From the NCBI RefSeq assembly GCF_014397245.1, contig NZ_JACLHY010000024.1, positions 1-64,000 on the forward strand: a stretch of 64,000 nt of DNA, given 5' to 3'. The position numbers and the translations under genes were made by a program. This DNA is from Arenibacter arenosicollis. GTDB lineage: Bacteria; Bacteroidota; Bacteroidia; Flavobacteriales; Flavobacteriaceae. Shown in pieces: positions 1,313 through 45,354 of this stretch; position 1 is the stretch's first letter; each line of letters opens with the position of its first letter. The notes below the pieces were generated by a model, which ran no database searches, was not told the origin of the DNA, and saw nothing but the letters and a program-made list of their open reading frames with translations.

Positions 1313-2053
1313 TTAATCAAAATTAATATTAGTGTTTTCAATTAGAGGTAATAGCTGTGTCAGCAATTTATCTGTGATCTTAATGTTCTTTAGCAATGTG
1401 AGTTGATGTAAATTGTGTACGTCGGATGCTACAAAGTCAATTAATCCTTCCTCCATTAATCTTATAGCTGTTTTTTGAACTTCTTTACCATAATAATCAC
1501 TTAAAGACAAAAGGTTCAACTGAAACAAAATGCCTTGTTTTTTGTATTTCTTATATTTTGAAAAATTATTATGAAGATAACCATAGCGTTCTGGGTGTGC
1601 CAATATTGGAAAATAGTGATGTTCTGCTATTTTCAATATGGCATCTTTAAAATTTATGGATGGCTGTAAATACGACATTTCTATTAATAAGTACTTCTTA
1701 TTTAAAGGCATTATTGCTTCATTTTCCAAGAGATGCTCAAAGTTGGCATCTATCATATGTTCTGCGGAAGCGTTTATATTAAACTTATCCATACCGGTTT
1801 TAGTCAAAGCTTCCTTTAAGGAGCAGAAAGCTTTTTCAATGGTTTCAGGTGTATTGGGATAATAGTTATGTATAACGTGTGGAGTGAAAATAAATTTGTT
1901 AACCCCAAAATCTGAAAATCCCTTTATCAATATCAAAGAATCGTCAACATTTTTGGCACCATCGTCAATTCCAGGAAGAATGTGATTATGGATATCTATA
2001 AAATTTTCAAGGGAGTCAACTAGGAATTTTTTCTTTTGAAAAAAATGTAACAT
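1313..2053 (-). CDS. CpsB/YwqE-type PHP-fold tyrosine phosphatase (copy 2)
   Basis: 246 residues with the PHP metal-binding motif DIHNHILPGIDDG (about residues 20-32), FTPH near residue 57, AHPERYG, and a late SDVHN motif. Together these are the usual metal ligands of the CpsB/CapC/YwqE family. These manganese-dependent phosphatases remove phosphate from tyrosine kinases that control capsule and exopolysaccharide assembly; that role is inferred here because no polysaccharide export gene lies in the window. It sits 129 bp downstream of a paralogue on the same strand, with the same length and the same N-terminal KKFLVD-type start. The two probably form a tandem duplication and are co-transcribed. 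Confidence 0.85.
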   Translation of the reverse strand: MLHFFQKKKFLVDSLENFIDIHNHILPGIDDGAKNVDDSLILIKGFSDFGVNKFIFTPHVIHNYYPNTPETIEKAFCSLKEALTKTGMDKFNINASAEHMIDANFEHLLENEAIMPLNKKYLLIEMSYLQPSINFKDAILKIAEHHYFPILAHPERYGYLHNNFSKYKKYKKQGILFQLNLLSLSDYYGKEVQKTAIRLMEEGLIDFVASDVHNLHQLTLLKNIKITDKLLTQLLPLIENTNINFD

Positions 2054-2182
2054 GAATGGTAATTTCCCGCAAAGGTAGGATTTAATTAATTAGTTTTTAT
2101 GAATATCCATCACTGCATTAGTGTTTTTGACTACAAATTTAAATGAATGCCCATATGTTTTGATTTGCGGTCAAGAGAAAAT

Positions 2183-2923
2183 TTAATAGAAGGTTTCCAC
2201 GTTCCTATTTAGAATGGGAATTAGCCTATTTAAGGTACTATTACTAAGTTTTATATTTTTGAGTAATTCCAATTGTTGTACATTGTGTATATCCGTACCA
2301 GCAAAGTCTATATAATTGTCCAACAGAAGCTTTTCTGCAATTTTGAACACTTGCTTTCCATAATAGTTACTGAGTGACAATAAATTTAATTGCAGAAAAA
2401 TTCCTTTGGATTTAAAGTCGTGGTATTTTCTGTAATCGGTATGGAGAAAGAAGTAGCGTTCTGGATGGGCCAATATAGGAAAGTACCCCCTAGCCGCAAT
2501 TTTGAATATAGCTTGGTCAAAGTTGATTGGTGTTTGTAGAAAAGGTATTTCTACCAACAAAAATTTATTGCGAATTGGCATAAACATTTTTTGGTCCAAT
2601 AAATTCTCAAAATTAGAATCGATCATATATTCTGAAGATGATTCCAATGCAATGTGCTTCATGCCTAAATTTAATAATTCGTTTTGAACCTTTTTATGTG
2701 CAGAATTTATAGATTCGGAGGTGTTTGGGTAGTAATTTTGACTTACATGTGGTGTAGTTATAATATGCGAAATTCCTATTTCATCAAAACCTTTTATTAT
2801 GTTTAAGGAGTCCGTAGTGTTTTCTGCCCCATCATCTATTCCCGGTAAAATATGGTTATGGATATCTACGAAGTGTCCTAGATAGTCAACCAGAAATTTT
2901 CTCTTATTCAATATTTGGAACAT
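2183..2923 (-). CDS. CpsB/YwqE-type PHP-fold tyrosine phosphatase (copy 1)
   Basis: 246 residues, colinear with the next gene downstream over its whole length. It carries DIHNHILPGIDDG at residues 20-32, TPHVSQNYYPNT near residue 57, AHPERYF and GTDIHN, so all expected PHP metal ligands are present. It is the promoter-proximal member of the tandem pair. Its partner kinase (Wzc/PtkA type) would normally be nearby in a capsule locus, but the upstream side is an unrelated divergent ATP-grasp gene, so the substrate is unknown. Confidence 0.85.
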   Translation of the reverse strand: MFQILNKRKFLVDYLGHFVDIHNHILPGIDDGAENTTDSLNIIKGFDEIGISHIITTPHVSQNYYPNTSESINSAHKKVQNELLNLGMKHIALESSSEYMIDSNFENLLDQKMFMPIRNKFLLVEIPFLQTPINFDQAIFKIAARGYFPILAHPERYFFLHTDYRKYHDFKSKGIFLQLNLLSLSNYYGKQVFKIAEKLLLDNYIDFAGTDIHNVQQLELLKNIKLSNSTLNRLIPILNRNVETFY

Positions 2924-7869: not shown

Positions 7870-10101
7870 CTAAAAATTCACAGTTACCTTTCCTCTAAGA
7901 TAAAATGGACTCCCAGGTGTGAAGTGAATTTCTTCCACTGAAGATGGCTCATTTTGCAACCTACTTTCCGTTGCAAACTGTGTTTCATTCCATTCCGTGT
8001 CAAATAGATTCTCAACAATTAGACCTATAGTCCAATTTTTAATAGTGTAATTGACATTCATATCTGTAACCGTATATCCTTTGGCCACAATAGAGTTATC
8101 TTCGTTGGCCGGTCTATTTTTTATCAATCTATAATTGATACTACCTGAAAAATCACCAATATTCCTAAATGAAATGCCACCAGAAGAAGTTAAATCTGGA
8201 GATAAAGGTATATAATCTGCACCTTCGGGTTCTTCGGTACTCCTTGCATAAGTGTAATTGATATCACCGTTGAGGTATAACCAATCTGTAAATTGGTACC
8301 GCAGACCAAAATCTATACCGAAGCGTTTAGTTTTACCACTAGGCTCTACTATTCCCGCATCTCCAACATAAACAAATTCCTGCTCCAAAAAGAGTGTCCA
8401 AAGTGCTGCATTCAACATTAATTTGCCGATAGGTTTTATGATGGCCCCAATATCTGCAGAATAGGCGGCAGGAAGAATTTCTTTGCCATTATTTGCTGTT
8501 ACCACCCTAGTGTCATTGGAATGAAATCCTATCCCTGTTTTCCCAAACATTTGTAACCCTTGTGATACAGCATAAATAATATTTAGCTTGGGTCCCAAAA
8601 AAAGTTTATGCTCACTTTTGTTATTATAGGTTTCGGATAATAGGTTTTCATAATCGAATTTAAAATAATCCAATCTTAGGCCTGGATTAAAAGTCCATTT
8701 GTTTTTTTTATAGGTTAAGTTGAAAAAACTGTAGCCGTTCAATTCATCTATATTTCCGTATGCCAACCTTTGCAATAATTCTTGCCTATTCTTGGTTTTG
8801 GATAATTGAACTTCATTTACGTCATCATATCTGAAACCAATGCCCGTTTCATATTTTAATTGGGAGTCGTGATCGCCTACATGGATGGAATGCTCATATT
8901 TGGTTTCTGCACCAATGATTGTTCTTTCTTCCATTTGGTGTATTTGATCCCCGTTAATAGGGTCTTCCAAGAAAAAGGTGAAGTTGGAAAACAATTCAAA
9001 ATCATATTTTGATATATATGCTTTTGATAATACATTGGAATGCTCGTTAATCAGTTTTTTGTGGTTGGCTAGAAAGTTAGATCTGCTGGTATTGCCTCCT
9101 TCGGTATCGTCAATAGCTCCAAATCTCCCGATAACACCTTGGTCAATTGAACGCTGTGGTATTTGGCCAGAAGCATCCCATTTACTTTGAAAATGTGATA
9201 ATGTAAGACTTAATTCCTGATTCTCCCTATTGTTGAAATTATAGCGCGCCATCATATTAATGCGATTGAAATTTTGGGGGGAATCAAATGCACCATCTGA
9301 AAGCACCAGTTCGGAAGCCACATACCCATGGCTAAAATCATCTTCCACAATTTTAAACATACCCAGGGTTCGGATAGTATTGAACATTCCGGTCTCAAGT
9401 GATAATAGGTTGTCATCTATTCTTTTTTTTGTTTTAATGTCAACATATCCAGCGGTATTAAAATTTCCCTGGTCTGCGTAATATGCCCCTTTTCCAAAAT
9501 CAATATTATCAATAGTTTCTGGAATTATAAAATGCATATCGGCATAGCCCTGACCATGGGCATGGGAAACCATATTTACAGGAAGTCCATCTACATTAAT
9601 GCTAATATCTGTTCCGTGATCAATATCAAATCCCCTTAAGAATATTTGCTCCGCTTTGCCACCACCGGCGTGTTGGCCAATGATTAGTCCTGGTACTTTT
9701 CTCAATATCTCCTGTGATGATTTAACGGGGTTTGCTTTAACATCTACATTTACAAATTGACTTAACGCATTGACTTTGGAAACCAAAATTACTTGATCTA
9801 GTGATACAGCTGATTCTTTAAGTATTACATCAATGGTGCCATCCAATTGATTTTCACTTATTGTAATTTGATAGTTTTGATATCCAAGACTGTAGAAGAA
9901 GATGATGTCGCCAAGCGAAATATCGTCCAATTCGAAATATCCTGAAACATTTGAATAGGTATATCCCCCAGTAGTCTTGTTATAAACACCTACCCCGTCT
10001 AAAGGTACATTGTCCTCCGAGACTATAGAGCCGTTTAGTTCATGTGCTTTTACACCTATGAAGGGAATAAAGAACACAAAAAAGATTATATAATTTTTCA
10101 T
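7870..10101 (-). CDS. TonB-dependent outer-membrane receptor, probable metallophore receptor
   Basis: 743 residues. A signal peptide (residues 1-19, ending GVKA) is followed by a CarboxypepD_reg-like beta-sandwich (about 20-95; NGSIVSEDNVPLDGVGVYN), a plug domain (about 110-220; VPGLIIGQHAGGGKAEQIFLR) and a 22-strand-type barrel ending in VTVNF with the expected terminal Phe. It has no STN signalling domain, unlike the SusC proteins in this window. It is the last gene of the minus-strand operon carrier protein-NRPS 1-His-rich protein-receptor, so its natural ligand is probably the peptide product, with or without metal. Length fits siderophore/metal receptors and not SusC. Confidence 0.9.
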   Translation of the reverse strand: MKNYIIFFVFFIPFIGVKAHELNGSIVSEDNVPLDGVGVYNKTTGGYTYSNVSGYFELDDISLGDIIFFYSLGYQNYQITISENQLDGTIDVILKESAVSLDQVILVSKVNALSQFVNVDVKANPVKSSQEILRKVPGLIIGQHAGGGKAEQIFLRGFDIDHGTDISINVDGLPVNMVSHAHGQGYADMHFIIPETIDNIDFGKGAYYADQGNFNTAGYVDIKTKKRIDDNLLSLETGMFNTIRTLGMFKIVEDDFSHGYVASELVLSDGAFDSPQNFNRINMMARYNFNNRENQELSLTLSHFQSKWDASGQIPQRSIDQGVIGRFGAIDDTEGGNTSRSNFLANHKKLINEHSNVLSKAYISKYDFELFSNFTFFLEDPINGDQIHQMEERTIIGAETKYEHSIHVGDHDSQLKYETGIGFRYDDVNEVQLSKTKNRQELLQRLAYGNIDELNGYSFFNLTYKKNKWTFNPGLRLDYFKFDYENLLSETYNNKSEHKLFLGPKLNIIYAVSQGLQMFGKTGIGFHSNDTRVVTANNGKEILPAAYSADIGAIIKPIGKLMLNAALWTLFLEQEFVYVGDAGIVEPSGKTKRFGIDFGLRYQFTDWLYLNGDINYTYARSTEEPEGADYIPLSPDLTSSGGISFRNIGDFSGSINYRLIKNRPANEDNSIVAKGYTVTDMNVNYTIKNWTIGLIVENLFDTEWNETQFATESRLQNEPSSVEEIHFTPGSPFYLRGKVTVNF

Positions 10102-10276: not shown

Positions 10277-10732
10277 TTAATGCAAGGGAGGTTTAACCGA
10301 TTTTGGGAAGAAACCCTTTTGGGTATTTTTTTCGGCCATATTATAATAATTATCGGTTATAACAATATGTATGTCATATTTTAACGGCAAATTACAGAAC
10401 AGGTGCTTATCTAGTTCAGTAGTAAAAAAAAATGAATTGTCGGAGCGGTTATCCTCATTGGACGCTTCGAAAAAAGAACTCACCAAATCTAGGAGTACAT
10501 GATCGTGAAAAGTTTGTTCATAAAAGTGGTAGTGATTGCCGTGCAACTGTTGATGGTCAGACGGAGTTGCGTGTGGTATAACGAAATTTGGAAAATCAAG
10601 TCCATGTGAAATTTTATGAAAAACTGTAATAAATTGTTGGTGTAATGGATTCATTAAATAGCATATGCCCATTAAAATGGCCAAGAATTTAACAATAGAC
10701 GGCTTAAAGCCTTTTCTGAATCCATTTTGCAT
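10277..10732 (-). CDS. His-rich small membrane-anchored protein coupled to NRPS 1
   Basis: 151 residues. One hydrophobic segment (about residues 14-30) is followed by a soluble part rich in His (HATPSDHQQLHGNHYHFYEQTFHDH is the richest section, residues about 54-78), and further His near the C-terminus. The pattern suggests metal binding on the periplasmic side. The start codon lies one base after the NRPS 1 stop (TAA-T-ATG), so translation is probably coupled, and the receptor gene follows 175 bp downstream. I do not recognise a named family; similar small His-rich proteins accompany metal-related TonB receptors in Bacteroidota, which is the basis for the inference. Confidence 0.7.
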   Translation of the reverse strand: MQNGFRKGFKPSIVKFLAILMGICYLMNPLHQQFITVFHKISHGLDFPNFVIPHATPSDHQQLHGNHYHFYEQTFHDHVLLDLVSSFFEASNEDNRSDNSFFFTTELDKHLFCNLPLKYDIHIVITDNYYNMAEKNTQKGFFPKSVKPPLH

Positions 10733-10733
10733 A

Positions 10734-13700
10734 TTATTCTTCCATAAGTGTTATTAAGGTTTCTTCAATATATTTAGCGTATTCGGAAATGGTTGGTAAT
10801 TCAAATATTTTGTTCAAAGGAAAATTCATTTCAACTTCTTCATTTATGCGCGCCGTAACCCGAATTGCAGCCAATGAATGTCCTCCCAAGTCAATGAAAT
10901 TATCGTGCATCCCTATTTTATCCAATAGTAGCACTTCCCTCCAAATTTCCTCCAATAGAACCTCGATCTCGTTTTTTGGTTCAACGTAAGGTGTGTCCAT
11001 TTGGAGTTGAACAAGGTTAAGGCTTCGTAAAGCTTTCTTATCTACTTTTCCATTGCTGGTTAAGGGCAATGTTTCCATATATTTAAATGTGTTGGGCAAC
11101 ATATAGCTTGGAAGCTTTTTCAAGAGGTGCTGTGTTAATTCTTGATGGGGAATTTTCGTCTTTGCCGTATAATATCCCACAAGCTGTGGTCTTTTAATAT
11201 CATTGTAATTAGATTCTACATATCCAATTTCTTTCATAATGCGCTTAACTTCATTCTCATCGATATATTCATTTATTTCCTCCAAAGTTTCAGTTCTAGT
11301 CTTATGTCCCATGCGCACATCCCAACTATAGGGAAAGGAATAATTGCTATATCCCCGCTGTTTTTTATGAACATAGATGCCTAATTGATTGATCAAACAA
11401 TTGGTGGATCTACCCGTATCGGTTGGTCGCACCCATCCCACTTTTTCTTTGAGATAGCCAAGCATTTCCTCCAGACTAACATCGCTATACCTATAAAAGT
11501 CAACGAATTGGACTTTTTTAAACGTCTCCTCATCCTTAAACATGGATACATCCAAAAGTTGATTTACAGCATCGTTCTCTTGGTGGTACAATTTACGAGC
11601 CTCCAAAATGGTTCGGTCTATTGTAGTAGTATCGGCATCATCATTCCAGAAAAGCTCTTCTGTTAACCGTGTCTCAAAAAATTGACCCCTTGAAAGTCCT
11701 GTAATCACAAATGGAATTTTCTTGTCAAGTGCAACCTTGGTGCTCAGCGTATATATGGTCTTAAAGCATCCATTACAGACGTTATGGTGTCTATCCAGGC
11801 TGTCCACAAAAATTTTGTTCATATGGGTTGTACTACCATAAATATGGTCTACACCAAGTTTCTGAACAATTCTATCTACGTTTGCCTTGGCTTGATCTGA
11901 TATGTAGCCATTATCCAAGGTAAATGCCAATACTCTTAGGCCCATATTGATTAGTCTAGCCAAAACATAGGTACTGTCCTTCCCCCCACTAAGGAGCGAT
12001 AAACAATCATAGCTTGCAATTGATCCTTTCCGCGAAAAAAGCAATTGTTGCAAATCCTTTTCTGTTTTAAAATATTTATCTGTTTTTTCTTTATAATTTT
12101 TAAACGCATTACAAAGATGACAAACTCCGTCATCGTCAAAATCAGATTTAGGATAGTTACTGGGCAGTCCACATTCCGCACAGTTTAGTATTTCATTTTC
12201 CGGTAACCGTTCTTGTCCATCAATAAGGACTACCGAAGCATTATCAATTTCTTTATGTTTCAATAAATTGGCCTCAATGTCGGCCAACTCTATTCTGAAT
12301 CCGTTTAATTTAATCTGTTCGTCATTACGACCTAGAAATTCCATTTCACCATCACGATTTATTCTGGCGAGATCTCCAGTTCGGTACATTTTCTTTCCAG
12401 GCCTGATAGTATCATCTATGAATTTTTGTTTTGTAAGTTCTTCCAAATTGGCATATCCTTCTGCCAGGCTGGCTCCGCTCAAGAAAAGTTCGCCTACGAC
12501 TCCTTTGGGAACTAAATTTTTGTGGTTATCAAGTATATAGGCATTCATGTTGGCTATTACCTTACCAATGGGCACAGATACCTGCTGATGCTTTTTTAAT
12601 TTGAATTTACTTACAATACAGCCTACGGTGGCTTCTGTTGGCCCGTATTCATTAAAAATATTGACATCCCTCCCTAAATAGTGATAAATATTTTTAGCTA
12701 CGTTGACCTTAAAGTCCTCTCCTCCAACAATCATGGTCTTTATTAGTGAATCTTGTATGTTGCTTCCGTGCATAAGGTTAACATGAGCAGGGGTAAGTTT
12801 AATTGAATTAACTTTATTTTCGGACAGTACCTGAATTAAAGATATGTCGGGCCCTAACATTCCTTCTCGGTAAACTACAACCTTACCTCCATTCATTAAA
12901 GGCAAAAAAGTGGAGGATATTGTTAGATCAAAACCTATAGAAGTGAACAAAGGGAAAACGGAATTTTCATCTATTTCATAGTAGGTAGAGGCCCATTGTA
13001 AATAGTTGTTTAAGGCCTTGTGAGAAACCATAACCCCCTTGGGCATGCCGGTAGATCCTGAAGTGTATATGTAATAGGCTATACAGGACTTTTTTAATTG
13101 ATGCCCAGTAGATATTTTAGGTTCAGAACTTATCCTTACCCTTTCCTCTCTTAAGTCCAATATTTTTGTTTCTCCAGTGATATTTTTCTTTAAGTCTGTT
13201 TCGGTTATTACCAATGAGCAATCAGAGTTTGAGATAAGAAATCCTATTCTACCTGCAGGCTGATCGGAAGCTATTGGAATAAATGTAGCTCCAATTTTCA
13301 TTAAGGCCAAGGCACTAATAATGTAATCAGGACTTCTATATAGGTGTAGGCCTACTTTTTCATTTTCCTTAATACCGTTTTTGATAAGAAAGTTCGCCAA
13401 CTGATTTGCTCTATTGTTAAGGTCCAAATAGCTTATCAAATCTTCACCATTCTCCAAAGCTATTCTTTTGGGATAATTGAGAACCGTTTTTTCGAAATGC
13501 TTCAAAAAGGTTCCCTTAAAATGGCTTGTTTCAGCGGTATTCGAAACCCCTATTAGTTCTTTTATTTCTTTTCTGGTAACCAAGGCTGGGCGTATTATAG
13601 GTTGATCCAAATCCGTTAGGAGAGCATCCAGTAGATTTAAGAAATGTTGCGGCACAAATTCAATTTCGCTTTCATCGAAGATATCCAGATTCAGGTCAAA

Positions 13701-14885
13701 TATTATTTCCAAATTGTCCTTGGAATCAAAGTCTATAATATGACATCGTAACTGGTGTGATGGGTCGCAATGATTAGGGTGTATCCATACCGACTTAGTA
13801 GGGAGACCATTAAAACTCGGAAAAGTTGTATTAATGTAATTTAGAACAGTGTTAAAACTTCGACTAAGCTCTGCCGAAGAAGAGCCGATTTGAGCGTTTC
13901 GCAGATATTCGTTTGTCTCGGCCTTCATTTTCCCAATTACTGAGGCAAAGCTATCGTCGTCATTGAGCTCCAAGCATAGGGGGAATAGTTCAACAAATAG
14001 TCCGGGTATTATTTTAAAATCCCGTGAGACGCGATTGTTTATGGGAGAACCGATTGACAATTTTGATTGGCCACTAATGCGATATAGAAAAATAAAAAGA
14101 AGGGTGGAAAAAAGAGTATATAGACCCATATCTGTTGTCAATGAACCAATCTTTGGATTTCGTGTCAATTCTTTAAGCTTATGTGTCCGTGTTGCGCCCA
14201 GAGCTAGGTTCACTCTTTTTGTACGGGTGGTTTCAACTTTTTGCCTTGACCCGTAGAGTTGTGGGGTAGTAGGGATATCCTTAACCTTATTTTTCCAATA
14301 ATTGGTAGTTTTTATATGTTCAGGAGAGATTCTTTTTTTTGCTTCGAATGCTATGAAATCACTATACGGAGGGGGAGTAGGGATGGCTGAGAGATTTTTA
14401 TCCAACACTCCTTGGTATAAATTTGCCATTGAAGAAAAAAGAAGTGCAGTTGTAGTGGCGTCAGTAATTAGGTGATGTAGATTAAGGTACCAGATGTATT
14501 TGTCCTTTTCTACTTTTAAAAGTGCCGTGTCAAATAAAGGTTTGGTAAAATCAAAAGGGAATTCACTTTTTTTCTGTAGCCAGTCTTGTACCGAGGGCAA
14601 GGCCACATTCCGGGTAAAATCGAATTTTTCCAAACTGAAGGCAAATTCTGATAATATATTTTGAGTAACGGTTGTATTTTTCTCATTAAAAACAGTACGT
14701 AATATCTCCGTTCGATCAATTAGTGCTTGAATTGCTAATTCAAAAGCTTTATCTGAAATATTCCCACAGATTTCAAAAGCGTAGGGTACATTATATAAAG
14801 GAACATTAGGATTTAATTTTTGCCCAATCCAAATGAGTTGCTGGCTTTTAGTGAGTGGTAGGCTTTTTGTGGTTTTAATTGGCAT
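10734..14885 (-). CDS. NRPS 1: C-A-T module with a PP-loop ATP-pyrophosphatase domain nested in the A domain
   Basis: 1383 residues. Condensation domain about 8-430 (HHLITDA at 137-143; the usual final Gly is Ala). Adenylation core about 460-890: YTSGSTGMPKG 607-617, NEYGPTE 745-751, YRTGDLAR 834-841, GRNDEQIKLNGFR 852-864. Then a foreign domain at about 898-1232 with CxxC 902/905, CxxC 922/925, SGGKDS 966-971, CNGC 1037-1040 and Cys1163, like WbpG-type sugar amidotransferases and TtuA/TtcA thiolation enzymes. The A domain resumes with LPSYMLP 1258-1264 and NGKVDKKAL 1278-1286, so the insert lies between motifs A8 and A9. The carrier domain follows (LGGHSL 1333-1338, Ser1337). There is no thioesterase. 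The hand-aligned specificity code is D-L-S-A-I-G-E-V-G-K, close to Asn codes. The upstream gene is the free carrier protein; the downstream gene is translationally coupled. Confidence 0.92.
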   Translation of the reverse strand: MPIKTTKSLPLTKSQQLIWIGQKLNPNVPLYNVPYAFEICGNISDKAFELAIQALIDRTEILRTVFNEKNTTVTQNILSEFAFSLEKFDFTRNVALPSVQDWLQKKSEFPFDFTKPLFDTALLKVEKDKYIWYLNLHHLITDATTTALLFSSMANLYQGVLDKNLSAIPTPPPYSDFIAFEAKKRISPEHIKTTNYWKNKVKDIPTTPQLYGSRQKVETTRTKRVNLALGATRTHKLKELTRNPKIGSLTTDMGLYTLFSTLLFIFLYRISGQSKLSIGSPINNRVSRDFKIIPGLFVELFPLCLELNDDDSFASVIGKMKAETNEYLRNAQIGSSSAELSRSFNTVLNYINTTFPSFNGLPTKSVWIHPNHCDPSHQLRCHIIDFDSKDNLEIIFDLNLDIFDESEIEFVPQHFLNLLDALLTDLDQPIIRPALVTRKEIKELIGVSNTAETSHFKGTFLKHFEKTVLNYPKRIALENGEDLISYLDLNNRANQLANFLIKNGIKENEKVGLHLYRSPDYIISALALMKIGATFIPIASDQPAGRIGFLISNSDCSLVITETDLKKNITGETKILDLREERVRISSEPKISTGHQLKKSCIAYYIYTSGSTGMPKGVMVSHKALNNYLQWASTYYEIDENSVFPLFTSIGFDLTISSTFLPLMNGGKVVVYREGMLGPDISLIQVLSENKVNSIKLTPAHVNLMHGSNIQDSLIKTMIVGGEDFKVNVAKNIYHYLGRDVNIFNEYGPTEATVGCIVSKFKLKKHQQVSVPIGKVIANMNAYILDNHKNLVPKGVVGELFLSGASLAEGYANLEELTKQKFIDDTIRPGKKMYRTGDLARINRDGEMEFLGRNDEQIKLNGFRIELADIEANLLKHKEIDNASVVLIDGQERLPENEILNCAECGLPSNYPKSDFDDDGVCHLCNAFKNYKEKTDKYFKTEKDLQQLLFSRKGSIASYDCLSLLSGGKDSTYVLARLINMGLRVLAFTLDNGYISDQAKANVDRIVQKLGVDHIYGSTTHMNKIFVDSLDRHHNVCNGCFKTIYTLSTKVALDKKIPFVITGLSRGQFFETRLTEELFWNDDADTTTIDRTILEARKLYHQENDAVNQLLDVSMFKDEETFKKVQFVDFYRYSDVSLEEMLGYLKEKVGWVRPTDTGRSTNCLINQLGIYVHKKQRGYSNYSFPYSWDVRMGHKTRTETLEEINEYIDENEVKRIMKEIGYVESNYNDIKRPQLVGYYTAKTKIPHQELTQHLLKKLPSYMLPNTFKYMETLPLTSNGKVDKKALRSLNLVQLQMDTPYVEPKNEIEVLLEEIWREVLLLDKIGMHDNFIDLGGHSLAAIRVTARINEEVEMNFPLNKIFELPTISEYAKYIEETLITLMEE

Positions 14886-14901: not shown

Positions 14902-15138
14902 TTAGACCCGGTGACGGGACATGTAAGCAACAATTCTATCAACAGTGCTAAAGTTTTCTATGGTTAAATCTTGAAAGGGAACTTTTATTTGGCTTCTATC
15001 TTCAATAAAACCTATAAGTCGCATAATACCTAAAGAATCAAGTATCCCCAAATCGAACAACATATCGTCTCCATTAATGGTTTCGAGCCTTTTATTGGAT
15101 ATTTCATTTTTTATGAATTCAATTATTGATTCTTTCAT
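14902..15138 (-). CDS. Stand-alone acyl/peptidyl carrier protein
   Basis: 78 residues from the ATG at 15138 (a longer frame would begin with TTG at 15144). The phosphopantetheine site is GILDSLGIM with the attachment Ser in DSLG, in a small helical fold ending in STVDRIVAYM. It lies 16 bp upstream of NRPS 1 and is the first gene of the minus-strand operon. It might carry a starter acyl group, a residue loaded by an A domain in trans, or an intermediate for the PP-loop enzyme; the sequence does not decide. The Sfp-type PPTase of the divergent operon would activate it. Confidence 0.85.
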   Translation of the reverse strand: MKESIIEFIKNEISNKRLETINGDDMLFDLGILDSLGIMRLIGFIEDRSQIKVPFQDLTIENFSTVDRIVAYMSRHRV

Positions 15139-15632
15139 TATCAATGTAAATTTAGGTGATGTATATAATAGGCATTACTGCCAGCATTTTCGAAGAATTA
15201 AAAGTTAAAGTATAGGTTTTACTATATAGTAATTTCAATGTGTTGGTTGCATTGCCTTAAAATGGAGTTCGGCATATACATTTATATTTGCCTAACTACT
15301 AAACGCTTCCTTTTTTAGGATTACGAATTAACGGTTTATTAGATGTCAGTTAAGGGGAGTAATTCATTTTCCGAATTTCAGGGAACAAGTTGTTTTATAC
15401 TGTGTTCATTGGTTTAAATAGTTGAATACTCCTATTAATGTAAAGTTAATTTATTTCTAAGCGCATTACCAAATAATCTAAAGGTATGTTGTCTGATTAT
15501 TTGATAAATTCATCGAAAAATTACATCTCACTTAAAAAGTTATAACAAATAATGTCATATTTATAAGTAATTTGTTAATTTACTGTGTTTTATGATATAG
15601 TATTTCCTGATTAAATAACTGCTCTACCGATT
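15139..15632. promoter_or_regulatory. Divergent control region of the NRPS island
   Basis: This 494-bp AT-rich spacer must hold the promoters of both NRPS operons. It contains a perfect 14-bp palindrome, TTACTATATAGTAA (15219-15232), about 80 bp upstream of the carrier-protein start, a plausible repressor site. A TATATTTG at 15283-15290 fits the -7 consensus in the plus direction but is 340 bp before HupE. I found no classical Fur box by eye. Confidence 0.45.
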
Positions 15633-16907
15633 ATGAAAAATATTAACTTTCCTTTAGCTTTAATTTTCTTTTTTATTTTAACAGTAAGTGGTTTTGCCCA
15701 TCAACCCAACCATAGTTTTATCTATTTGAGGGTATATGAAAACCAAAATGTAGAGGGTAGATTTGAAATAGATGTCAAAGATTTGAACAAATATTTTGGT
15801 TTGCAACTTAAGGAAAACCCGAAAGCGGAAGATGTTCAGCCTTATTTGAATCAAATGAAGGATTATTTACTTGAAAACACGAGATTTTCATCTGGAAATG
15901 ATGAATATAAAATCGTTTTTACAGATGAAATAAGTATAATGTCTGTAGTTAAAACCTCTTTTGCACGTTTTCATTTTTACCTGGAGAATTCGCTGGAACT
16001 TCCTGAGGAGATAGAGGTTACCTATACGGTTCTTTTTGATGAAGACCCCGATCATATAAATATGTTGGCCTTCGAATACAACTGGAAGGCCGGTTTAATT
16101 AATAATGAATCAATTATCGCCCTGGATTTTACCCCGAAAGAGAGTACAAAAATTCTGTCCCTTACTGATTCTTCCATTTGGAAGGGGTTTGTGGCCATGG
16201 TTAAACAAGGGGTATGGCATATTTGGATAGGTTTGGATCATATTCTATTCTTGCTGGCATTGATCCTTCCATCAGTTGTCCGTAGAAAAAAGAAATTAAT
16301 TGAGGTTGAACCGGGGATAACCGAATCTAAATATTACATATGGGGATGGGAGCCAGTTCAGAAATTTAAACCGGCTTTCATATATATTATCAAGGTCATA
16401 ACATTTTTCACCATTGCACATACCATAACTTTAACATTGGCTTCATTGGAAATCGTTAGTTTGCCTTCCCGAGTCGTGGAATCCATTATAGCTTTATCTA
16501 TAGGCCTTGCCGCTTATCACAATATCACCCCAATATTTAAAGGTAGGGATTGGATAATTGCTTTTGTTTTTGGTCTGTTTCACGGTTTTGGATTTGCAAG
16601 TGTTCTTGGCGATCTTGGAATAAAAGGCGAGTTCCTCACTTTAACCTTGTTTGGTTTTAATTTAGGAGTTGAAATTGGACAAGTCGCAATCATTGCCCTC
16701 ATATTTCCAATTCTATTTTTTATACGAAAAATAAAGTTTTATCCTCGTTTTCTTGTTTATTTATCTGTATTGCTGATTGTTATTTCATTATACTGGTTTG
16801 TGGAGCGCGCCTTTGATTACGATATGGTGTTGGATGAGAAAATCAGAAGATTTGGGGGGGACGTACTAAGGGCTCTTGGGCTCAGGGAAGACTATTATAA
16901 ATCTTAA
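15633..16907 (+). CDS. HupE/UreJ-like membrane protein with a periplasmic N-terminal domain
   Basis: 424 residues. Signal peptide (1-22, ending GFAHQ), a soluble N-terminal domain of about 180 residues, then at least six TM segments carrying the family signature residues: VWHIWIGLDHILFLLAL, FTIAHTITL, and LFHGFGFASVLGDLG. HupE/UreJ proteins are linked to nickel or other metal uptake; this long form with an extra periplasmic domain has no fixed substrate. It is the first gene of the plus-strand operon, 27 bp before NRPS 2, which ties metal handling to the peptide. Confidence 0.85.
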   Translation: MKNINFPLALIFFFILTVSGFAHQPNHSFIYLRVYENQNVEGRFEIDVKDLNKYFGLQLKENPKAEDVQPYLNQMKDYLLENTRFSSGNDEYKIVFTDEISIMSVVKTSFARFHFYLENSLELPEEIEVTYTVLFDEDPDHINMLAFEYNWKAGLINNESIIALDFTPKESTKILSLTDSSIWKGFVAMVKQGVWHIWIGLDHILFLLALILPSVVRRKKKLIEVEPGITESKYYIWGWEPVQKFKPAFIYIIKVITFFTIAHTITLTLASLEIVSLPSRVVESIIALSIGLAAYHNITPIFKGRDWIIAFVFGLFHGFGFASVLGDLGIKGEFLTLTLFGFNLGVEIGQVAIIALIFPILFFIRKIKFYPRFLVYLSVLLIVISLYWFVERAFDYDMVLDEKIRRFGGDVLRALGLREDYYKS

Positions 16908-16934: not shown

Positions 16935-19900
16935 ATGTCAATTTTAAGAAGATGGAAGAATAAGGAGAAAGGGAAATTGGCCAATGACATTATAGGCAAG
17001 GTGCCCTATGGAGCAACCATTCCGCTTACTGGAGGACAACAAAGACTTTTTTTTCTCGAATCTTTATATCCCAAAAATCCGGTTTATAATTCTTCTGAAA
17101 TTTATACTTTCAGAGGCCGACTTGTCATAGAAAATCTAAAAAAAAGTCTACAGACCATATTTGACCTGAACGAGGTTTTTAGGTGTTCTTTTCATTTTAA
17201 GGATGGGGTTCCATTTCAAAATGTCGAGGATTCGGTTAAAGTGAATTTGGTACAATATGATATAAGCGATCTTTTGGCCTCAGAAAAAGATTTGCGAATA
17301 GAGGAAATTATGTCTTCCGATGCGCTAAATCCTTTTGATTTGAATAATCCACCGCTAATAAGAACAACCCTTATTAAGAGACATTCCAACGAGCATATTT
17401 TGTTTATTACCATGCACCATATTATCGTTGATAAATGGTCTATGGGACTGTTGCGGGAACAATTGGCCAAATATTATAGGTCTTTACCCTCAAATTCTGA
17501 AATTTTCGAAATTCAGTCCAGAATTCAATTTCCAGACTTTGCATATTGGCAACAGAGTAGGGATAGTGACAAGAATCAATTAGAATATTGGAAAAATAAA
17601 CTTTCAGGAAAAATTCCCAAGCTTGAGCTGCCAATAGATTATCCTCATCCGGCCCATCCTACCTTTAAAGGTGATTCCAACGTACAGCTTTTATCAAAAT
17701 CCTTGTCCAACAAAATTTTAGAACTATCAAAAGAAGCGGAATGTACACCTTTTATATTATTGTTATCCGTTTACTATGTTTTATTGTTTCGATATAGTCG
17801 CCAAAATGATATAGTTATTGGCTCTCCGATTTCTATTCGCAATTCAAAAACGCTTGAAAATGTAATCGGTTTTTTCGATGAAACCATTGTATTAAGAACG
17901 GATTTTTCACTACCAATATCATTTCTTGATTTAGTAAAGCTCGTACGCCAAACCGTACTTGAGGCGTTTAGTAATAAAGATATTTCTTTTGATGTCTTGG
18001 TCAGAGAAGTGAAACCAGAGAGGGTAGCCGGAATCAATCCATTTTTACGGACAATGTTTATTTATCATGATGTTCTTCCTATGCCATTTTTTGGTGAAGA
18101 TTTAGAACTCTCATATGATTTCTATAATACCGGTGTCTCGAAATTTGATTTAACACTTTATGTAGCAAACGAAAATGGACAGCTGTTAACAGAGTTTGAA
18201 TATTCAACGGATTTGTTTGATGAAACTACCATTGAACAATTACAGGATCACTTTAGGTTAGTATTAATTGGAGTTACAGACAATCCGAAGTTTGATATTT
18301 CCGCTATTCCTATGATGACAGAAAGGGAGAAAGAAATTCTTTTACCAGAGAAAGCGACTTGCCCTGGGCCCTTTGACTCATATAAATCTATTCACGAAAT
18401 TATACGTCATTCAGCATCTGATAAGAAGGATGCCATTGCATTGGTCTATGGGCCGGAACATTTAACATACGGCGAACTTGATGATTTATCAGATACTATA
18501 GCTCAACATATACTGGCATATAGCAATAATGATAGACAGATCATAGGATTGTGTATGGAACGATCAACCACCTTGATCGCTGGTTTGTTAGGTATTTTAA
18601 AAGCTGGGTGTGCTTACTTGCCTTTAGATCCAGATTACCCTTTGGGCCGTATTTCATTTATGCTGGAGGATTCCAAAGTCCCAATAGTTCTTACCCAGGC
18701 GAATTTATCGTCTAAATTTAATTCTTTTAAAGGAACCCAACTTTTAATAAATGAGATAATCAATTCCAATGAATCCCATTCAATTGCATTTCCAGATGTG
18801 AAAAGTTTCGATTTGGCATACGTGATTTATACATCTGGAAGTACAGGTAAGCCAAAAGGTGTTCCCATTACACACTCTAATATAATAAATTCTACAGAAG
18901 GCCGGCTTTCGTTTTATCCCGAAAACCCTACAGCATTTTTATTAATGTCATCCGTGGCTTTTGATAGTTCCAAGGCGGGAATTTTTTGGACACTATGCAC
19001 CGGGGGCACTTTGGTAATATCCGAGAAGAGATTGGAACAGGATGTGGCCAAAATGAATGATATTATTAATGATAAAAAAATCAGCCATACGCTGATGCTG
19101 CCTTCTCTTTACAAAGTTCTTTTAGAATATAGTGACTTGTCTAAGCTAGAGTCTCTTACTACCGTTATGGTCGCAGGAGAGGCCTGTTCTGCAGCATTGT
19201 GCACCACACATTTCAGTAAGTTGCCGAATGTAGGCCTTTACAATGAATACGGCCCGACCGAAGCATCTGTTTGGTGTATGGCTTATAGGATAACAAATGA
19301 AAATTTAGGTTACATAACCCCAATCGGGAGTGCGGTCGCAAATGCCGAAATATACCTTCTTGATTCCAATCTAAATTTGGTTCCTTTTGGAGCGGTCGGT
19401 GAAATTTATGTAGGCGGACCTGGTCTGGCCAATACTTATTTGAACAGACCTGACTTAACGGATTTGGCTTACATTAATAATCCATTTTCGGAGGTAGTTG
19501 GAGATAAATTGTACAAAACCGGGGATTTGGGTAGGTACCGTAATGACGGTGAAATGCTATTCTTGGGAAGGGCGGACCAACAGGTTAAAATTCGTGGATT
19601 CCGGGTGGAGTTAAATGAAATTGAGGAGGTTATTCGCAAGAATCCAACGGTTGATAAGGCCTTAGTTGTGGTATCCGAATCTAATAAATCTGATGCCGCT
19701 AGCGGAGCTGATAATGCAGGTTATTTAATTGCTTATGTGGAATGCCAAGAAAATCTTGACATAGAGCAGCTCAAAAAAGAATTGGCAATAAGTTTACCGA
19801 ATTATATGGTCCCTTCTGTAATCATCCCTATTGACAATTTTCCTCTTTTGCCAAACGGGAAAATTGATAGAAAAAGCTTGCCGAAACCTGAAAAAAATAA

Positions 19901-21581
19901 TGTAACGACGTTATCATCTAAATTTCAAGGCCCTAGAAATGAATTGGAAATTGCATTAACCGAAATTTGGCAAGAGGTATTGAATATGACACCAATCGGT
20001 GTATACGATAATTTTTTTGAAATAGGTGGTGATTCTATATTGAGTATTCAAATTGTTGCCAAGGCGAGAAGTAAAAATATAATGTTAAAGGCCAATCAAA
20101 TATTTGAGAACCAAACAATAGCAGATCTTGCGCTCTTTTCAAATATTGGAACACTTGATATAATTGAAGAGCAAAGTGTTGAAGGTAACGTTAGTTTGAC
20201 GCCTATTCAACATTGGTTTTTTAATACGCACCAAAATGCCCCACATTATTGGAATCAAATGGTCCGATTGTTGAATGTGGGGAAACTAGATTGGAGTATC
20301 ATTCAATTGGCAATTGAAGAATTGGTTTATTACCATGATGCTCTTCGACTCAAGTTTGTAAAGACGGAATATTGGAAAGCCATAGTAAATTCCAAAGATG
20401 AAATAAAAGTCTTTCGTTTAGAGGATGTTAGCTTCATTAGCGATACCGGTGAACAGGATATAAAAATTCAAGAACTATTAGTAGCTGTTCAAGAGTCGGC
20501 CAAATTGTCCGATGGTCAACTTTTTAAATGTATATATTTCAATTGTGGAGAAACACAGGAGAATCAAGTGTTTCTAATAGCCCATCACTTGGTAATAGAC
20601 GTAGTTTCATGGAATATTCTATTTAATGATCTTAATGTTGCCATCAACCAGATTCAAGACAATAAACCATTATTATTTACGGGTAAGACAGCATCGATTG
20701 AAAAATGGGGAGAATATCTAAAAGAACTTTCCAAATCCAAACACCTCAAGGAAGAACTTTCATTTTGGAAGTCTCAGAAGAACGATATTCAAATGTTTCC
20801 TTCAGATTTTGTTTGTGAAAAGAATTATTATAAAGAGAGTACAATAGAAATAAACCAAGCTTCGCTTGGATCGGAGGATACTCTTAAGCTTCAGAAAGAT
20901 GCAAATTGGGTTTATAACACGAAGATTGAGGAGTTGTTGGTAACTGCACTTCTTTCCGTCCTTCATGAATGGAGCCACTTAGATCGGATTTGTCTTGGAA
21001 TGGAAAAACACGGTCGGAGTGCAGAAATTTTGGATTTGGACGTATCGGGCACCATTGGTTGGTTTACCTCGTATTTCCCAGTTGCGTTGAATGTAATAAA
21101 GCAGAGGGATATAGGCGATCAAATCAAATCTGTAAAAGAACAACTTAGAAAGGTTCCGAATAATGGTGTAGGGTATGGAATACTCAAATATCTTAACCAA
21201 GAACAAATAAATATAGAAGAACTTGATCAACAACCCCAGGTGATATTTAATTATCTGGGTAATCGAATGGTTAACGAAAACACGTCGAATATAGGGTATG
21301 ACTTATTGTGGGAGGGCAGTCGTGATTCCAGAAGTGAACGAAGTTATGGATTGGAGATTAACGCATATATCCTAAATGGGCAATTGTATTCTAACTGGAG
21401 TTACAGTACTGACTTATATAAGACAACTACCATTGAAAAATTGGTTTCTGAATATAATGCCGTTTTGCATCAAATAATTTTGCACTGCAAAAACAAGGAG
21501 GTTCGAGAATATACGCCCTCAGATTTTCCTGAAGCCGATATTAGTCAAGACGATTTGGACAACCTTCTAGAGAATTTATAA
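16935..21581 (+). CDS. NRPS 2: C-A-T-E module
   Basis: 1548 residues. Condensation domain about 28-465 (HHIIVDK 161-167; Lys replaces the usual Gly). Adenylation domain about 485-980: YTSGSTGKPKG 632-642, NEYGPTE 770-776, YKTGDLGR 860-867, NGKIDRKSL 974-982. Carrier domain GGDSIL 1031-1036 (Ser1034). The final domain has epimerisation motifs: HHLVIDVVSW 1217-1226, GWFTSYFPV 1375-1383, GVGYGILKYL 1411-1420, PQVIFNYLGN 1434-1443. So a D-residue is expected. The hand-read code is about D-S-A-L-M-A-E-V-W-K, which I cannot assign. The C-terminus ends in an acidic SQDDLDNLLENL tail, like short docking tails that link an E domain to a C domain on the next protein; NRPS 3 starts 6 bp later with a C domain. 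Confidence 0.92.
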   Translation: MSILRRWKNKEKGKLANDIIGKVPYGATIPLTGGQQRLFFLESLYPKNPVYNSSEIYTFRGRLVIENLKKSLQTIFDLNEVFRCSFHFKDGVPFQNVEDSVKVNLVQYDISDLLASEKDLRIEEIMSSDALNPFDLNNPPLIRTTLIKRHSNEHILFITMHHIIVDKWSMGLLREQLAKYYRSLPSNSEIFEIQSRIQFPDFAYWQQSRDSDKNQLEYWKNKLSGKIPKLELPIDYPHPAHPTFKGDSNVQLLSKSLSNKILELSKEAECTPFILLLSVYYVLLFRYSRQNDIVIGSPISIRNSKTLENVIGFFDETIVLRTDFSLPISFLDLVKLVRQTVLEAFSNKDISFDVLVREVKPERVAGINPFLRTMFIYHDVLPMPFFGEDLELSYDFYNTGVSKFDLTLYVANENGQLLTEFEYSTDLFDETTIEQLQDHFRLVLIGVTDNPKFDISAIPMMTEREKEILLPEKATCPGPFDSYKSIHEIIRHSASDKKDAIALVYGPEHLTYGELDDLSDTIAQHILAYSNNDRQIIGLCMERSTTLIAGLLGILKAGCAYLPLDPDYPLGRISFMLEDSKVPIVLTQANLSSKFNSFKGTQLLINEIINSNESHSIAFPDVKSFDLAYVIYTSGSTGKPKGVPITHSNIINSTEGRLSFYPENPTAFLLMSSVAFDSSKAGIFWTLCTGGTLVISEKRLEQDVAKMNDIINDKKISHTLMLPSLYKVLLEYSDLSKLESLTTVMVAGEACSAALCTTHFSKLPNVGLYNEYGPTEASVWCMAYRITNENLGYITPIGSAVANAEIYLLDSNLNLVPFGAVGEIYVGGPGLANTYLNRPDLTDLAYINNPFSEVVGDKLYKTGDLGRYRNDGEMLFLGRADQQVKIRGFRVELNEIEEVIRKNPTVDKALVVVSESNKSDAASGADNAGYLIAYVECQENLDIEQLKKELAISLPNYMVPSVIIPIDNFPLLPNGKIDRKSLPKPEKNNVTTLSSKFQGPRNELEIALTEIWQEVLNMTPIGVYDNFFEIGGDSILSIQIVAKARSKNIMLKANQIFENQTIADLALFSNIGTLDIIEEQSVEGNVSLTPIQHWFFNTHQNAPHYWNQMVRLLNVGKLDWSIIQLAIEELVYYHDALRLKFVKTEYWKAIVNSKDEIKVFRLEDVSFISDTGEQDIKIQELLVAVQESAKLSDGQLFKCIYFNCGETQENQVFLIAHHLVIDVVSWNILFNDLNVAINQIQDNKPLLFTGKTASIEKWGEYLKELSKSKHLKEELSFWKSQKNDIQMFPSDFVCEKNYYKESTIEINQASLGSEDTLKLQKDANWVYNTKIEELLVTALLSVLHEWSHLDRICLGMEKHGRSAEILDLDVSGTIGWFTSYFPVALNVIKQRDIGDQIKSVKEQLRKVPNNGVGYGILKYLNQEQINIEELDQQPQVIFNYLGNRMVNENTSNIGYDLLWEGSRDSRSERSYGLEINAYILNGQLYSNWSYSTDLYKTTTIEKLVSEYNAVLHQIILHCKNKEVREYTPSDFPEADISQDDLDNLLENL

Positions 21582-24028: not shown

Positions 24029-24766
24029 ATGGGTGCTGCGCTAACTAATTATTACGATTTAGAACCAGAAACCCTACACCTATGGCATGTTGATGTAGGG
24101 ACCGATTTAGATAGTCGTTATTTTAACCTTCTAAGCGAAGATGAAAAAATTAGGGCGGGGAAATATAGGTTTACCCAAGATCAACATATGTTTATTAAAG
24201 CCCGGGCGGTTTTGAGAATATTATCTGGACATTATTTACAAAAAGATCCCATCCATATTCGGTTTAAGTATGGAGCGTATGGCAGACCATACTTTCAGGA
24301 TGAAAATAGTTTGCTTTTCAACGTTTCCCATTCAGAAGGCAAGGCTATTATAGGATTTGGCAAGTTTACTGAAATGGGGACGGATATTGAAAAGATCAAG
24401 AGCGATTTTAATGTACTCGATATAGCGGGTAAGTTTTTTTCCCAAAGTGAAATCAAATCGCTAACAGAAATTCCTAAGGAAGAACAGAATAGGGCGTTTT
24501 TTCGCTGTTGGACTCGAAAGGAATCGTTTATTAAAGCAAAGGGTGATGGTCTTTCCTTACCCTTGGATTCCTTTTCTGTTACGCTTGATGACGATATTAA
24601 GGCTAGACTTATTGAAACAAAATGGAACCCCTGTGAAAAGGAAAATTGGAAAATATTTTCTTACGTACAAAATGATAATTACATAGTCGCAGTTTCGGTT
24701 CAGGGAAACGTTCAAAAAATTAAATATAGGAATTGGGATGAGGTTTATAAACGCTATAATCTTTAG
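24029..24766 (+). CDS. Sfp-type 4'-phosphopantetheinyl transferase
   Basis: 245 residues with the family motifs FNVSHSEG (97-104), GTDIEKI (117-123; Asp119 and Glu121 bind Mg) and WTRKESFIKAKGDGL (161-175). It moves phosphopantetheine from CoA to the carrier-domain Ser of the NRPS proteins and the free carrier protein. It is the last gene of the plus-strand NRPS operon, 35 bp after NRPS 3, and converges on the hydrolase gene 14 bp further on. Confidence 0.93.
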   Translation: MGAALTNYYDLEPETLHLWHVDVGTDLDSRYFNLLSEDEKIRAGKYRFTQDQHMFIKARAVLRILSGHYLQKDPIHIRFKYGAYGRPYFQDENSLLFNVSHSEGKAIIGFGKFTEMGTDIEKIKSDFNVLDIAGKFFSQSEIKSLTEIPKEEQNRAFFRCWTRKESFIKAKGDGLSLPLDSFSVTLDDDIKARLIETKWNPCEKENWKIFSYVQNDNYIVAVSVQGNVQKIKYRNWDEVYKRYNL

Positions 24767-37307: not shown

Positions 37308-37339
37308 GATGTTTCTTTTTTTGATGTACCTATCAATGT

Positions 37340-37804
37340 TTAAACGGTTTTGGAATTTGCAGCGGTTTTAATAGCCTTTTTGATTCGTATGTAAGTACCA
37401 CAGCGACAAATATTGCCGTTCATAGCTCCTTCGATTTCTTCATCGGTCGGATTGGGATTCTTTTTGAGAAATGCACTCGCGTTCATAATCTGGCCAGCCT
37501 GACAATATCCACACTGATACACATCTTCCTCCAACCATGCTTTTTGCACGGGATGATCTCCGTTTTCAGATAGTCCTTCGATGGTCGTAATCTCTTGATT
37601 ACCAACAGCCGACACAGGCAATTGGCAGGAACGTACGGCATTATCGCCAAGGTGTATGGTACAGGCACCGCATTGCGAAATACCACAACCGTATTTTGTG
37701 CCCACCAATTTTAGATGGTCCCTTAAGACCCAAAGAATGGGGGTAGTGGGATCTACATCCAATTGCTGAGTTTTTCCGTTGATTTTTAGATTGAAGTTTG
37801 CCAT
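37340..37804 (-). CDS. (2Fe-2S) small subunit of the molybdenum hydroxylase
   Basis: 154 residues with both iron-sulfur motifs of the family: [15 protein letters not shown] (plant-type cluster) and [10 protein letters not shown] with NICRCGTY (helical domain cluster). It is the IorA-type electron-transfer partner of the large subunit downstream. No signal peptide is visible; co-export with the Tat-dependent partner is the usual route. Confidence 0.9.
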
Positions 37805-41758: not shown

Positions 41759-41846
41759 ATAACTAAAACTCAAATAAAAACTGCCAATGAAAAACTAAAA
41801 ACAATAAAAAACTCACTTTGTTTCTCCCCAAGAAGGGAATAAAAAA

Positions 41847-41874
41847 ATCGGAAAATGTCTCACCATTTCCCGAT
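41847..41874 (+). promoter_or_regulatory. Conserved hairpin in the susC leader (locus 1)
   Basis: ATCGGAAAATG pairs with CATTTCCCGAT (one G-T) around TCTCAC, 53 bases before susC. A hairpin with the same loop pattern stands in the other susC leader. There is no T-run, so it is not a simple terminator. Confidence 0.6.
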
Positions 41875-41926
41875 CAGTAGAAGTGATTAACCACAATGTA
41901 TAACCACAATCAAACATTATAAAAGT

Positions 41927-45307: not shown

Positions 45308-45354
45308 AACAACAAGCTATGCATTATTTAGAAACAACATATAAGATTAAGAAA

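What the first reader, a model, noticed from the sequence alone, without database searches (positions are those of the whole stretch)
11190..12194. NRPS adenylation domain interrupted by a PP-loop ATP-pyrophosphatase with three cysteine pairs
Seen: between motifs A8 and A9 of NRPS 1 lies about 335 residues with CxxC 902/905 and 922/925, SGGKDS 966-971, CxxC 1037/1040 and Cys1163. Known: the A8-A9 site is where methyltransferases interrupt A domains; N-terminal zinc ribbon, SGGKDS and a later CxxC plus third Cys describe TtuA/TtcA-type thiolation enzymes, and WbpG-type amidotransferases share the zinc ribbon and PP-loop. Inference: the A domain activates a residue and the insert converts a carbonyl of it to a thio- or amidino group on the carrier. 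I know of no characterised PP-loop interruption of this kind. This is the strongest candidate for a new system in the window.
Basis: partly seen in the sequence, partly recalled or inferred. Interest (0 to 1): 0.9.

Follow-up and report, generated by a model that had tools for sequence, protein, structure and literature searches.

The report
Asparagine-modifying enzyme inside peptide synthetase
A marine bacterium's peptide-building enzyme carries a second enzyme inside its asparagine-loading part, most likely to turn the bound asparagine into a nitrile, an arrangement already known from the antibiotics cystobactamid and albicidin.

Summary
NRPS1 (10734-14885, minus, 1383 aa) has its adenylation domain interrupted after A8 by about 330 residues with a four-cysteine ribbon, SGGKDS, CxxC 1037/1040 and Cys1163. 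In 20 of 20 close relatives found, the nesting is the same and these residues are invariant; the insert is the most conserved part of the protein (mean identity 76%; C 41%, A core 52%).

CysH turns carrier-bound Asn into beta-cyanoalanine or isomerises it. The code here, DL[S/T]KIGEVGK, is the published asparagine/cyanoalanine code with T, one letter off in the window. Best reading: an AMDH-type domain acting on carrier-bound Asn, most likely dehydrating it.

Added here: the neighbouring NRPS2 has a histidine code in 12 of 12 complete cases; HupE/UreJ and usually a TonB receptor lie beside it, suggesting a metallophore.

The parts
10734..14885 (-). NRPS1: C - A(interrupted) - T, 1383 aa
13554..14864 (-). 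Condensation domain of NRPS1 (aa 8-444), HHxxxD 137-142
12327..13496 (-). Adenylation core of NRPS1 (aa 464-853); code DLSKIGEVG + K1280, asparagine type
   Evidence: published codes PMC12283262 (passages); code positions of GrsA recalled
11202..12185 (-). Insert, AMDH-type PP-loop domain (aa 901-1228)
12111..12182 (-). Four-cysteine ribbon, C902/C905/C922/C925 (zinc in 8wex)
   Evidence: PMC10607449 (first of four parts)
11973..11990 (-). PP-loop SGGKDS (aa 966-971)
11766..11777 (-). CxxC C1037/C1040, possible cluster ligands
11397..11399 (-). Cys1163, third possible cluster ligand, in the TNCLIN motif
11001..11201 (-). Rest of the A subdomain (aa 1229-1295) with A10 NGKVD (11040-11054); AMP-binding_C just under its cut-off
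10767..10955 (-). Carrier domain of NRPS1 (aa 1311-1373)
14902..15144 (-). Free-standing carrier protein (80 aa), 77% identical to that of L002
   Evidence: relatives
10277..10732 (-). 151-aa histidine-rich protein; export is my inference from its N-terminus
   Evidence: (no family)
7870..10101 (-). TonB-dependent receptor
15633..16907 (+). HupE/UreJ_2 protein, divergent, conserved partner
16935..21581 (+). NRPS2: C - A - T - second condensation-type domain, read as E from TIGR01720; code DSALMAEVW, histidine type
   Evidence: PMC12283262
21588..23993 (+). NRPS3: C - T - TE, no A domain found
24029..24766 (+). 4'-phosphopantetheinyl transferase

Best explanation
The insert is an AMDH-type (aminomutase / amide dehydratase) domain. 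Seen in the sequence: an A domain with an asparagine-type code, and a PP-loop domain inside it, next to the carrier. Inferred: the A domain loads L-Asn on the carrier with one ATP; the insert binds a second ATP at SGGKDS and activates the side-chain amide oxygen by adenylation, as the superfamily does; loss of AMP gives the nitrile, beta-cyanoalanine, on the carrier. In some settings the same domain could give isoasparagine instead. The C domain joins this residue to an acyl starter brought by the small carrier protein; NRPS2 adds histidine and epimerises it, and NRPS3 releases the product. The cysteine ribbon is probably a zinc site as in 8wex; C1037/C1040/C1163 may hold an iron-sulfur cluster. 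The neighbouring TonB receptor and HupE/UreJ protein suggest that the product is taken up again, probably with a metal.
For: Precedent: AlbIV and CysH have a PP-loop insert (342 aa; 38 kDa) with an Asn-activating A domain; CysH-bound Asn becomes 18 Da lighter only with the domain, and its deletion abolishes the cyanoalanine and isoasparagine products; the authors' BLAST homologues were all inserted in A domains predicted for Asn. Code DL[S/T]KIGEVG in 21 of 21, DLTKVGEVG in Roseovarius, K1280 at A10 in the window; DLTKIGEVGK is given for Asn and beta-cyanoalanine. Insert most conserved part. Fold: 8wex first, TtuA next. A detached homologue in Streptomyces stands beside asnB and an A-T protein. 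Tree: 34 nested rows, the detached one and one long-branch free protein on one branch, SH-aLRT 97.
Against: No direct sequence comparison with CysH could be made, and AlbIV was not fetched. No product is known. Dehydration and aminomutation cannot be told apart by sequence, and PP-loop homology does not exclude thiolation. The cysteine set, whose CxxC is absent in LpNASAT, resembles that of CtaC and TtuA. The A-T protein beside the detached Streptomyces homologue has the code DARHASLMT, not the DLTK type. The tree is a quick search with long branches flagged. The window's own code has S where the published code has T.
Confidence: 0.7

Rival explanations
1. Aminomutase instead of dehydratase: the domain isomerises carrier-bound Asn to isoasparagine (the other activity of the CysH AMDH domain), so that the peptide continues through the beta-carbonyl.
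For: CysH does this, mainly after hydroxylation by CysJ but also, less, without it.
Against: In CysH hydroxylation favours it; no hydroxylase family came up among the 34 window genes scanned with Pfam; an enzyme elsewhere in the genome was not looked for.
Confidence: 0.15
2. Thioamide synthesis: sulfur from an iron-sulfur cluster held by C1037/C1040/C1163 replaces the amide oxygen of Asn, as CtaC does for closthioamide.
For: CxxC...C spacing: PP-loop Asp to CxxC 67 here and 77 in CtaC, CxxC to third Cys 123 and 127; TtuA and LarE among the fold hits; 8cnz (LarE) aligned at its CxxC.
Against: Same cysteines in amidotransferase-family proteins, one with all three beside HisH/HisF (L067/L095) and one with the CxxC aligned (L066/L094); the fold match is better to 8wex; the characterised AMDH domain on the same substrate is not reported to thiolate; no sulfur-donor family among the 34 genes scanned. 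The CtaC cluster also lacks a sulfur donor, so this last point is weak.
Confidence: 0.08
3. Amidine synthesis: ammonia displaces the activated amide oxygen of Asn, as WbpG/WbuX enzymes do on N-acetyl sugars.
For: Best named family is TIGR03573; ribbon and fold shared with 8wex.
Against: Score below the family cut-off (128.3 against 203.2); a tblastn with one HisH and one HisF query at E 1e-3 found none in the window or in L002-L021 (HisH about 12 kb away in the two Roseobacter plasmids, among sugar genes). The loci hold 10 kb of flank at most.
Confidence: 0.05
4. The insert is catalytically dead and only structural.
For: None beyond the lack of a known product.
Against: PP-loop and the key cysteines invariant in 21 of 21, and the insert more conserved than the domains around it.
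Confidence: 0.02

Closest known systems
AMDH domain of CysH (cystobactamid) and the homologous domain of AlbIV (albicidin)
   Same: PP-loop (SGGKD) domain of about 340 aa with an Asn-activating A domain; specificity code published for Asn/beta-cyanoalanine (one letter different in the window).
   Different: CysH and AlbIV are stand-alone modules that work in trans on a line with an inactive A domain; here the module has its own C domain and lies with NRPS2, NRPS3, HupE and TonB genes. Sequence identity not measured.
N-acetyl sugar amidotransferase (WbpG/WbuX, TIGR03573; solved LpNASAT 8wex)
   Same: Four-cysteine ribbon, PP-loop, overall fold; amide chemistry on the oxygen.
   Different: Below the family cut-off, no HisH/HisF found near, nested in an NRPS; the second CxxC is absent in 8wex and in L022-L024, present in L066, L067, L069, L070, L073, L075, L083.
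CtaC (closthioamide thioamide synthetase) and TtuA/TtcA
   Same: PP-loop plus CxxC and a third Cys at similar spacing; CtaC also works on carrier-bound substrates.
   Different: Free-standing; insert sulfur; the fold match to TtuA (TM about 0.4) is weaker than to 8wex (0.60).
Methyltransferase-interrupted A domains (e.g. 5wmm)
   Same: Insertion between A8 and A9 (PMC11355689, passages).
   Different: Unrelated insert: 5wmm is among the hits of the A-domain model, not among the 50 hits listed for the insert.
QueC (preQ0 synthesis, amide to nitrile as second step: recalled)
   Same: PP-loop enzyme that makes a nitrile; weak match PF06508, 26.2 bits.
   Different: Match covers 73 residues only; other substrate, not nested.

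Membership tests
AMDH-type interrupted A domain | Inserted in an A domain with asparagine code | tested here: met
   code; window has S for T at one position
AMDH-type interrupted A domain | PP-loop SGGKD in an insert of about 340 aa | tested here: met
   342 aa in AlbIV, about 330 aa here
AMDH-type interrupted A domain | Sequence homology to CysH and the seven core motifs | not testable with these tools
   CysH sequence not in reach; motifs are in a supplement (no look-ups allowed); AlbIV not fetched
AMDH-type interrupted A domain | Dehydrates or isomerises carrier-bound Asn | not testable with these tools
   needs protein mass spectrometry
N-acetyl sugar amidotransferase TIGR03573 | Score above curated cut-off | tested here: not met
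   128.3 against 203.2 bits
N-acetyl sugar amidotransferase TIGR03573 | CxxC...CxxC ribbon and PP-loop | tested here: met
N-acetyl sugar amidotransferase TIGR03573 | HisH/HisF partner in the cluster (seen for some members, L094, L095) | tested here: not met
   none in the window or in L002-L021
CtaC/TtuA [4Fe-4S] thiolation enzymes | CxxC plus third Cys near the PP-loop | tested here: inconclusive
   present and invariant, spacing similar; no coordinates returned, so proximity and cluster not tested
CtaC/TtuA [4Fe-4S] thiolation enzymes | Inserts sulfur | not testable with these tools
   needs enzymology
Methyltransferase-interrupted A domain | Insert is a methyltransferase | tested here: not met

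The most novel reading that the evidence does not exclude
The AMDH domain is a [4Fe-4S] PP-loop enzyme: the CxxC...Cys set invariant in the nested proteins holds a cluster that takes part in amide activation, which would explain the brown colour of CysH, for which its authors report looking for the CxxCxxxC motif. In these marine bacteria it makes a nitrile-bearing beta-cyanoalanyl-histidine metallophore that is taken up through the TonB receptor and HupE protein, a system conserved across phyla.
Probability: 0.2. Interest if true: 0.65.

Novelty: new member of a known kind. Interest (0 to 1): 0.42.

Why it matters
It places a conserved gene cluster (12 of 149 sampled genera of the family; relatives in a Pyrinomonadaceae and a Saprospiraceae bin and in two Roseobacter plasmids) in the small class of lines that rewrite asparagine on the carrier. 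The published AMDH mechanism is open and its metal unknown; the invariant CxxC...Cys set gives a concrete, mutable hypothesis. The Asn*-His core beside HupE/UreJ predicts a product that can be looked for by mass, with a metal-related role that can be tested.

Tried and rejected
Thioamide by analogy with CtaC: first favoured on the cysteine set, set back when proteins above the TIGR03573 cut-off turned out to hold the same cysteines: all three aligned in L067, L069, L070 and L075 (their genes lie in L095, L096, L097, L099), the CxxC aligned in L066 (L094). Three other members lack them (L022-L024). Amidine by analogy with WbpG: no HisH/HisF found.

Script slip: one search printed G as the last code letter, off by one; the lysine is K1280, and the '(K)' printed is a label, not a computed residue. 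An earlier count said 13 nested frames; the right number is 12. Own-genome search for the prolyl-carrier dehydrogenase of relatives gave six matches at 30-35% identity, so the window's genome probably lacks the pyrrole starter genes. A dyad upstream of hupE is a lead only (see Noticed in passing).

Papers. Search listings. None of the 20 papers listed of 23 holds both 'interrupted adenylation domain' and 'PP-loop'; the precedents came through the code search and then 'cyanoalanine'. No search was made for this cluster, for flavobacterial metallophores or for HupE, so I make no claim that they are unpublished. Seen as passages: PMC2922099, PMC11253843, PMC11355689, PMC12283262, PMC8949500, PMC7966384 (plus half of its section 7); only reference-list passages: PMC10212144, PMC8837603, PMC4598715; two of three parts: PMC6772006; first of four parts: PMC10607449. 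PMC8341866 (survey of interrupted A domains) is not held and was not read; it may list such inserts. PMC11085572 was not read (one search failed).

Full report
Observation. NRPS1 is one reading frame, 10734-14885 minus, 1383 aa. Domain scans give C (8-444), AMP-binding (464-811) and carrier (1311-1373) and, inside, TIGR03573 at 901-1220 with 128.3 bits, below its cut-off of 203.2; QueC PF06508 at 26.2 bits over 73 residues.

Conservation. A scan of genome contigs with the insert, which reaches close relatives only, returned 20 loci; 20 of 20 have the same nesting in one frame. The sites of the ribbon, PP-loop, CxxC, Cys1163 and Cys961 are invariant in 21 of 21. Mean identity to the window is 76% for the insert, 41% for C, 52% for the A core, 71% for the carrier. 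By record title and the lineages printed, 18 loci are Flavobacteriaceae or less closely named Bacteroidota; the others are a Pyrinomonadaceae bin (L019) and a Saprospiraceae bin (L020). Among 149 genomes of the family 12, own included, have the nested form; among 395 of the phylum 58 have a match at 1e-8, of which 2 (own and G345) score above 500 bits and the others at most 83. Plasmids gave 15 records: two Roseobacters with the nested form (51-53% identity), one Streptomyces with a detached form (40%), and 12 weaker ones, 10 of them annotated as N-acetyl sugar amidotransferase (nesting).

What it is. The published precedents are AlbIV and CysH. I read passages of PMC12283262, PMC8949500 and PMC7966384, and the second half of the linker section of the last. 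[quoted passage not shown] PMC7966384 reports dehydration of CysH-bound Asn, its loss on deletion of the domain, isomerisation to isoasparagine, a brown protein without a CxxCxxxC motif, and BLAST homologues all inserted in A domains predicted for Asn. The nested family here has DL[S/T]KIGEVG in 21 of 21 (S in the window) and K at A10 in the window. I therefore file it as AMDH-type by architecture, substrate code and fold, with direct homology to CysH untested.

Fold. AlphaFold2 on the 21 inserts: mean pLDDT 85.2, pTM 0.87. Foldseek ranks 8wex (LpNASAT) first, E 5.6e-11, TM 0.60 with rmsd 8.2, then TtuA (TM about 0.4), with YcfA and LarE among the 50 listed. The 934-residue A-insert-T model has pLDDT 79.0 and pTM 0.53; its strands 431-439 and 785-792 (NRPS1 880-888 and 1234-1241) lie either side of the insert, and the 50 hits listed are NRPS A domains or modules, 5wmm among them. 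No coordinates were returned, so whether the three cysteines meet near the PP-loop was not tested.

Cysteines. CxxC and the third Cys are absent in L022-L024, and 8wex has no CxxC in its alignment with L095. All three are present in the nested family, in the detached Streptomyces protein L059, and in free-standing L067, L069, L070, L075 and L083; L073 and L061 show them in two separate aligned pieces; L066 shows the CxxC, its alignment ending before the third. Of six genes of this group rescanned, five score above the TIGR03573 cut-off (305-353 bits; L094-L097, L099) and L098 does not (118 bits); L094 and L095 hold HisH and HisF. So the set is not specific to sulfur transfer. Spacing is 67 and 121-123 in the window and in five of five nested rows printed, 77 and 127 in CtaC.

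Tree. 65 rows (34 nested, 22 free, 8 free with CxxC, 1 detached); rows over 600 aa that were neither nested nor detached, and L058 and L093 (near-copies), were left out. The 34 nested rows, L059 and the long-branch L061 stand together at SH-aLRT 97; the label nested needs two changes, one not ruled out; quick search, long branches flagged, root drawn at the midpoint.

Surroundings. In L002-L021 (at most 10 kb of flank): carrier protein 19 of 20, HupE 18 of 20 plus an 88-residue piece at the contig edge of L010 (L016, the other, is a 5-kb contig), TonB receptor 18 of 20, His-rich protein 17 of 20. HupE also adjoins the Roseobacter NRPS and lies in the G345, G006 and G129 stretches (L101, L103, L104), but not in the 19-kb stretch L102. 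A stand-alone ligase is in 10 of 20, a prolyl-carrier-type dehydrogenase and an ornithine cyclodeaminase in 6 of 20, which points to a pyrrole-2-carboxyl starter in those; the window shows only the carrier protein. NRPS2 has DSAL[M/I]AEVW in 12 of 12 complete A domains aligned, window included; a thirteenth, L019, is incomplete and reads DSVL. DSALIAEVWK is a published His code. Reading by eye, the second module of the Roseovarius protein has DSALVAEVW. The A-T protein beside the detached Streptomyces domain reads DARHASLMT, five of nine letters shared with DPRHVSLLAK, which PMC12283262 derives from Asn-activating domains; this is weak support at best. A metallophore is an inference from TonB, HupE, the His-rich protein and His, nothing more.

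Verdict. A real, well-conserved member of a known kind. What is added here is its cluster, its spread, and a testable idea about the metal of AMDH domains.

Noticed in passing
window 15547-15562: Dyad AAATAATGTCATATTT 86 bases before hupE; sites with at most 1 mismatch to AAATATnnnnATATTT in 6 of 19 loci, 60 shuffles mean 0.55, most 3. The pattern was chosen on the same sequences. Possible operator.
   Followed up: partly
L059 13062-17112: Streptomyces plasmid: AMDH-like domain detached from the A domain and fused to a condensation- or epimerisation-like domain, beside an A-T protein, asnB and an amino acid racemase.
   Followed up: partly
L061 4653-5855: Free-standing Streptomyces protein with PP-loop, CxxC and a STNCMMN motif like the nested family, no ribbon aligned, near genes annotated as acyl carrier protein and ketosynthase.
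   Followed up: no
L094-L099: Amidotransferase-family proteins with the CxxC...Cys set, two with HisH/HisF near, one beside a carbamoyltransferase, one beside an amidase: the family may hold two kinds with different metal needs.
   Followed up: partly
window 28596-51505: Six sulfatase genes by Pfam (28596, 30453, 31955, 33526, 46923, 50108), with FecR, TonB-plug and SusD genes at 40592-46875: probably use of a sulfated polysaccharide.
   Followed up: no
window 35109-37804: Molybdopterin-binding large subunit and 2Fe-2S small subunit of an aldehyde oxidase-like enzyme, minus strand.
   Followed up: no
window 1313-2923: Two CpsB/CapC-like genes of equal length (246 aa) in tandem.
   Followed up: no
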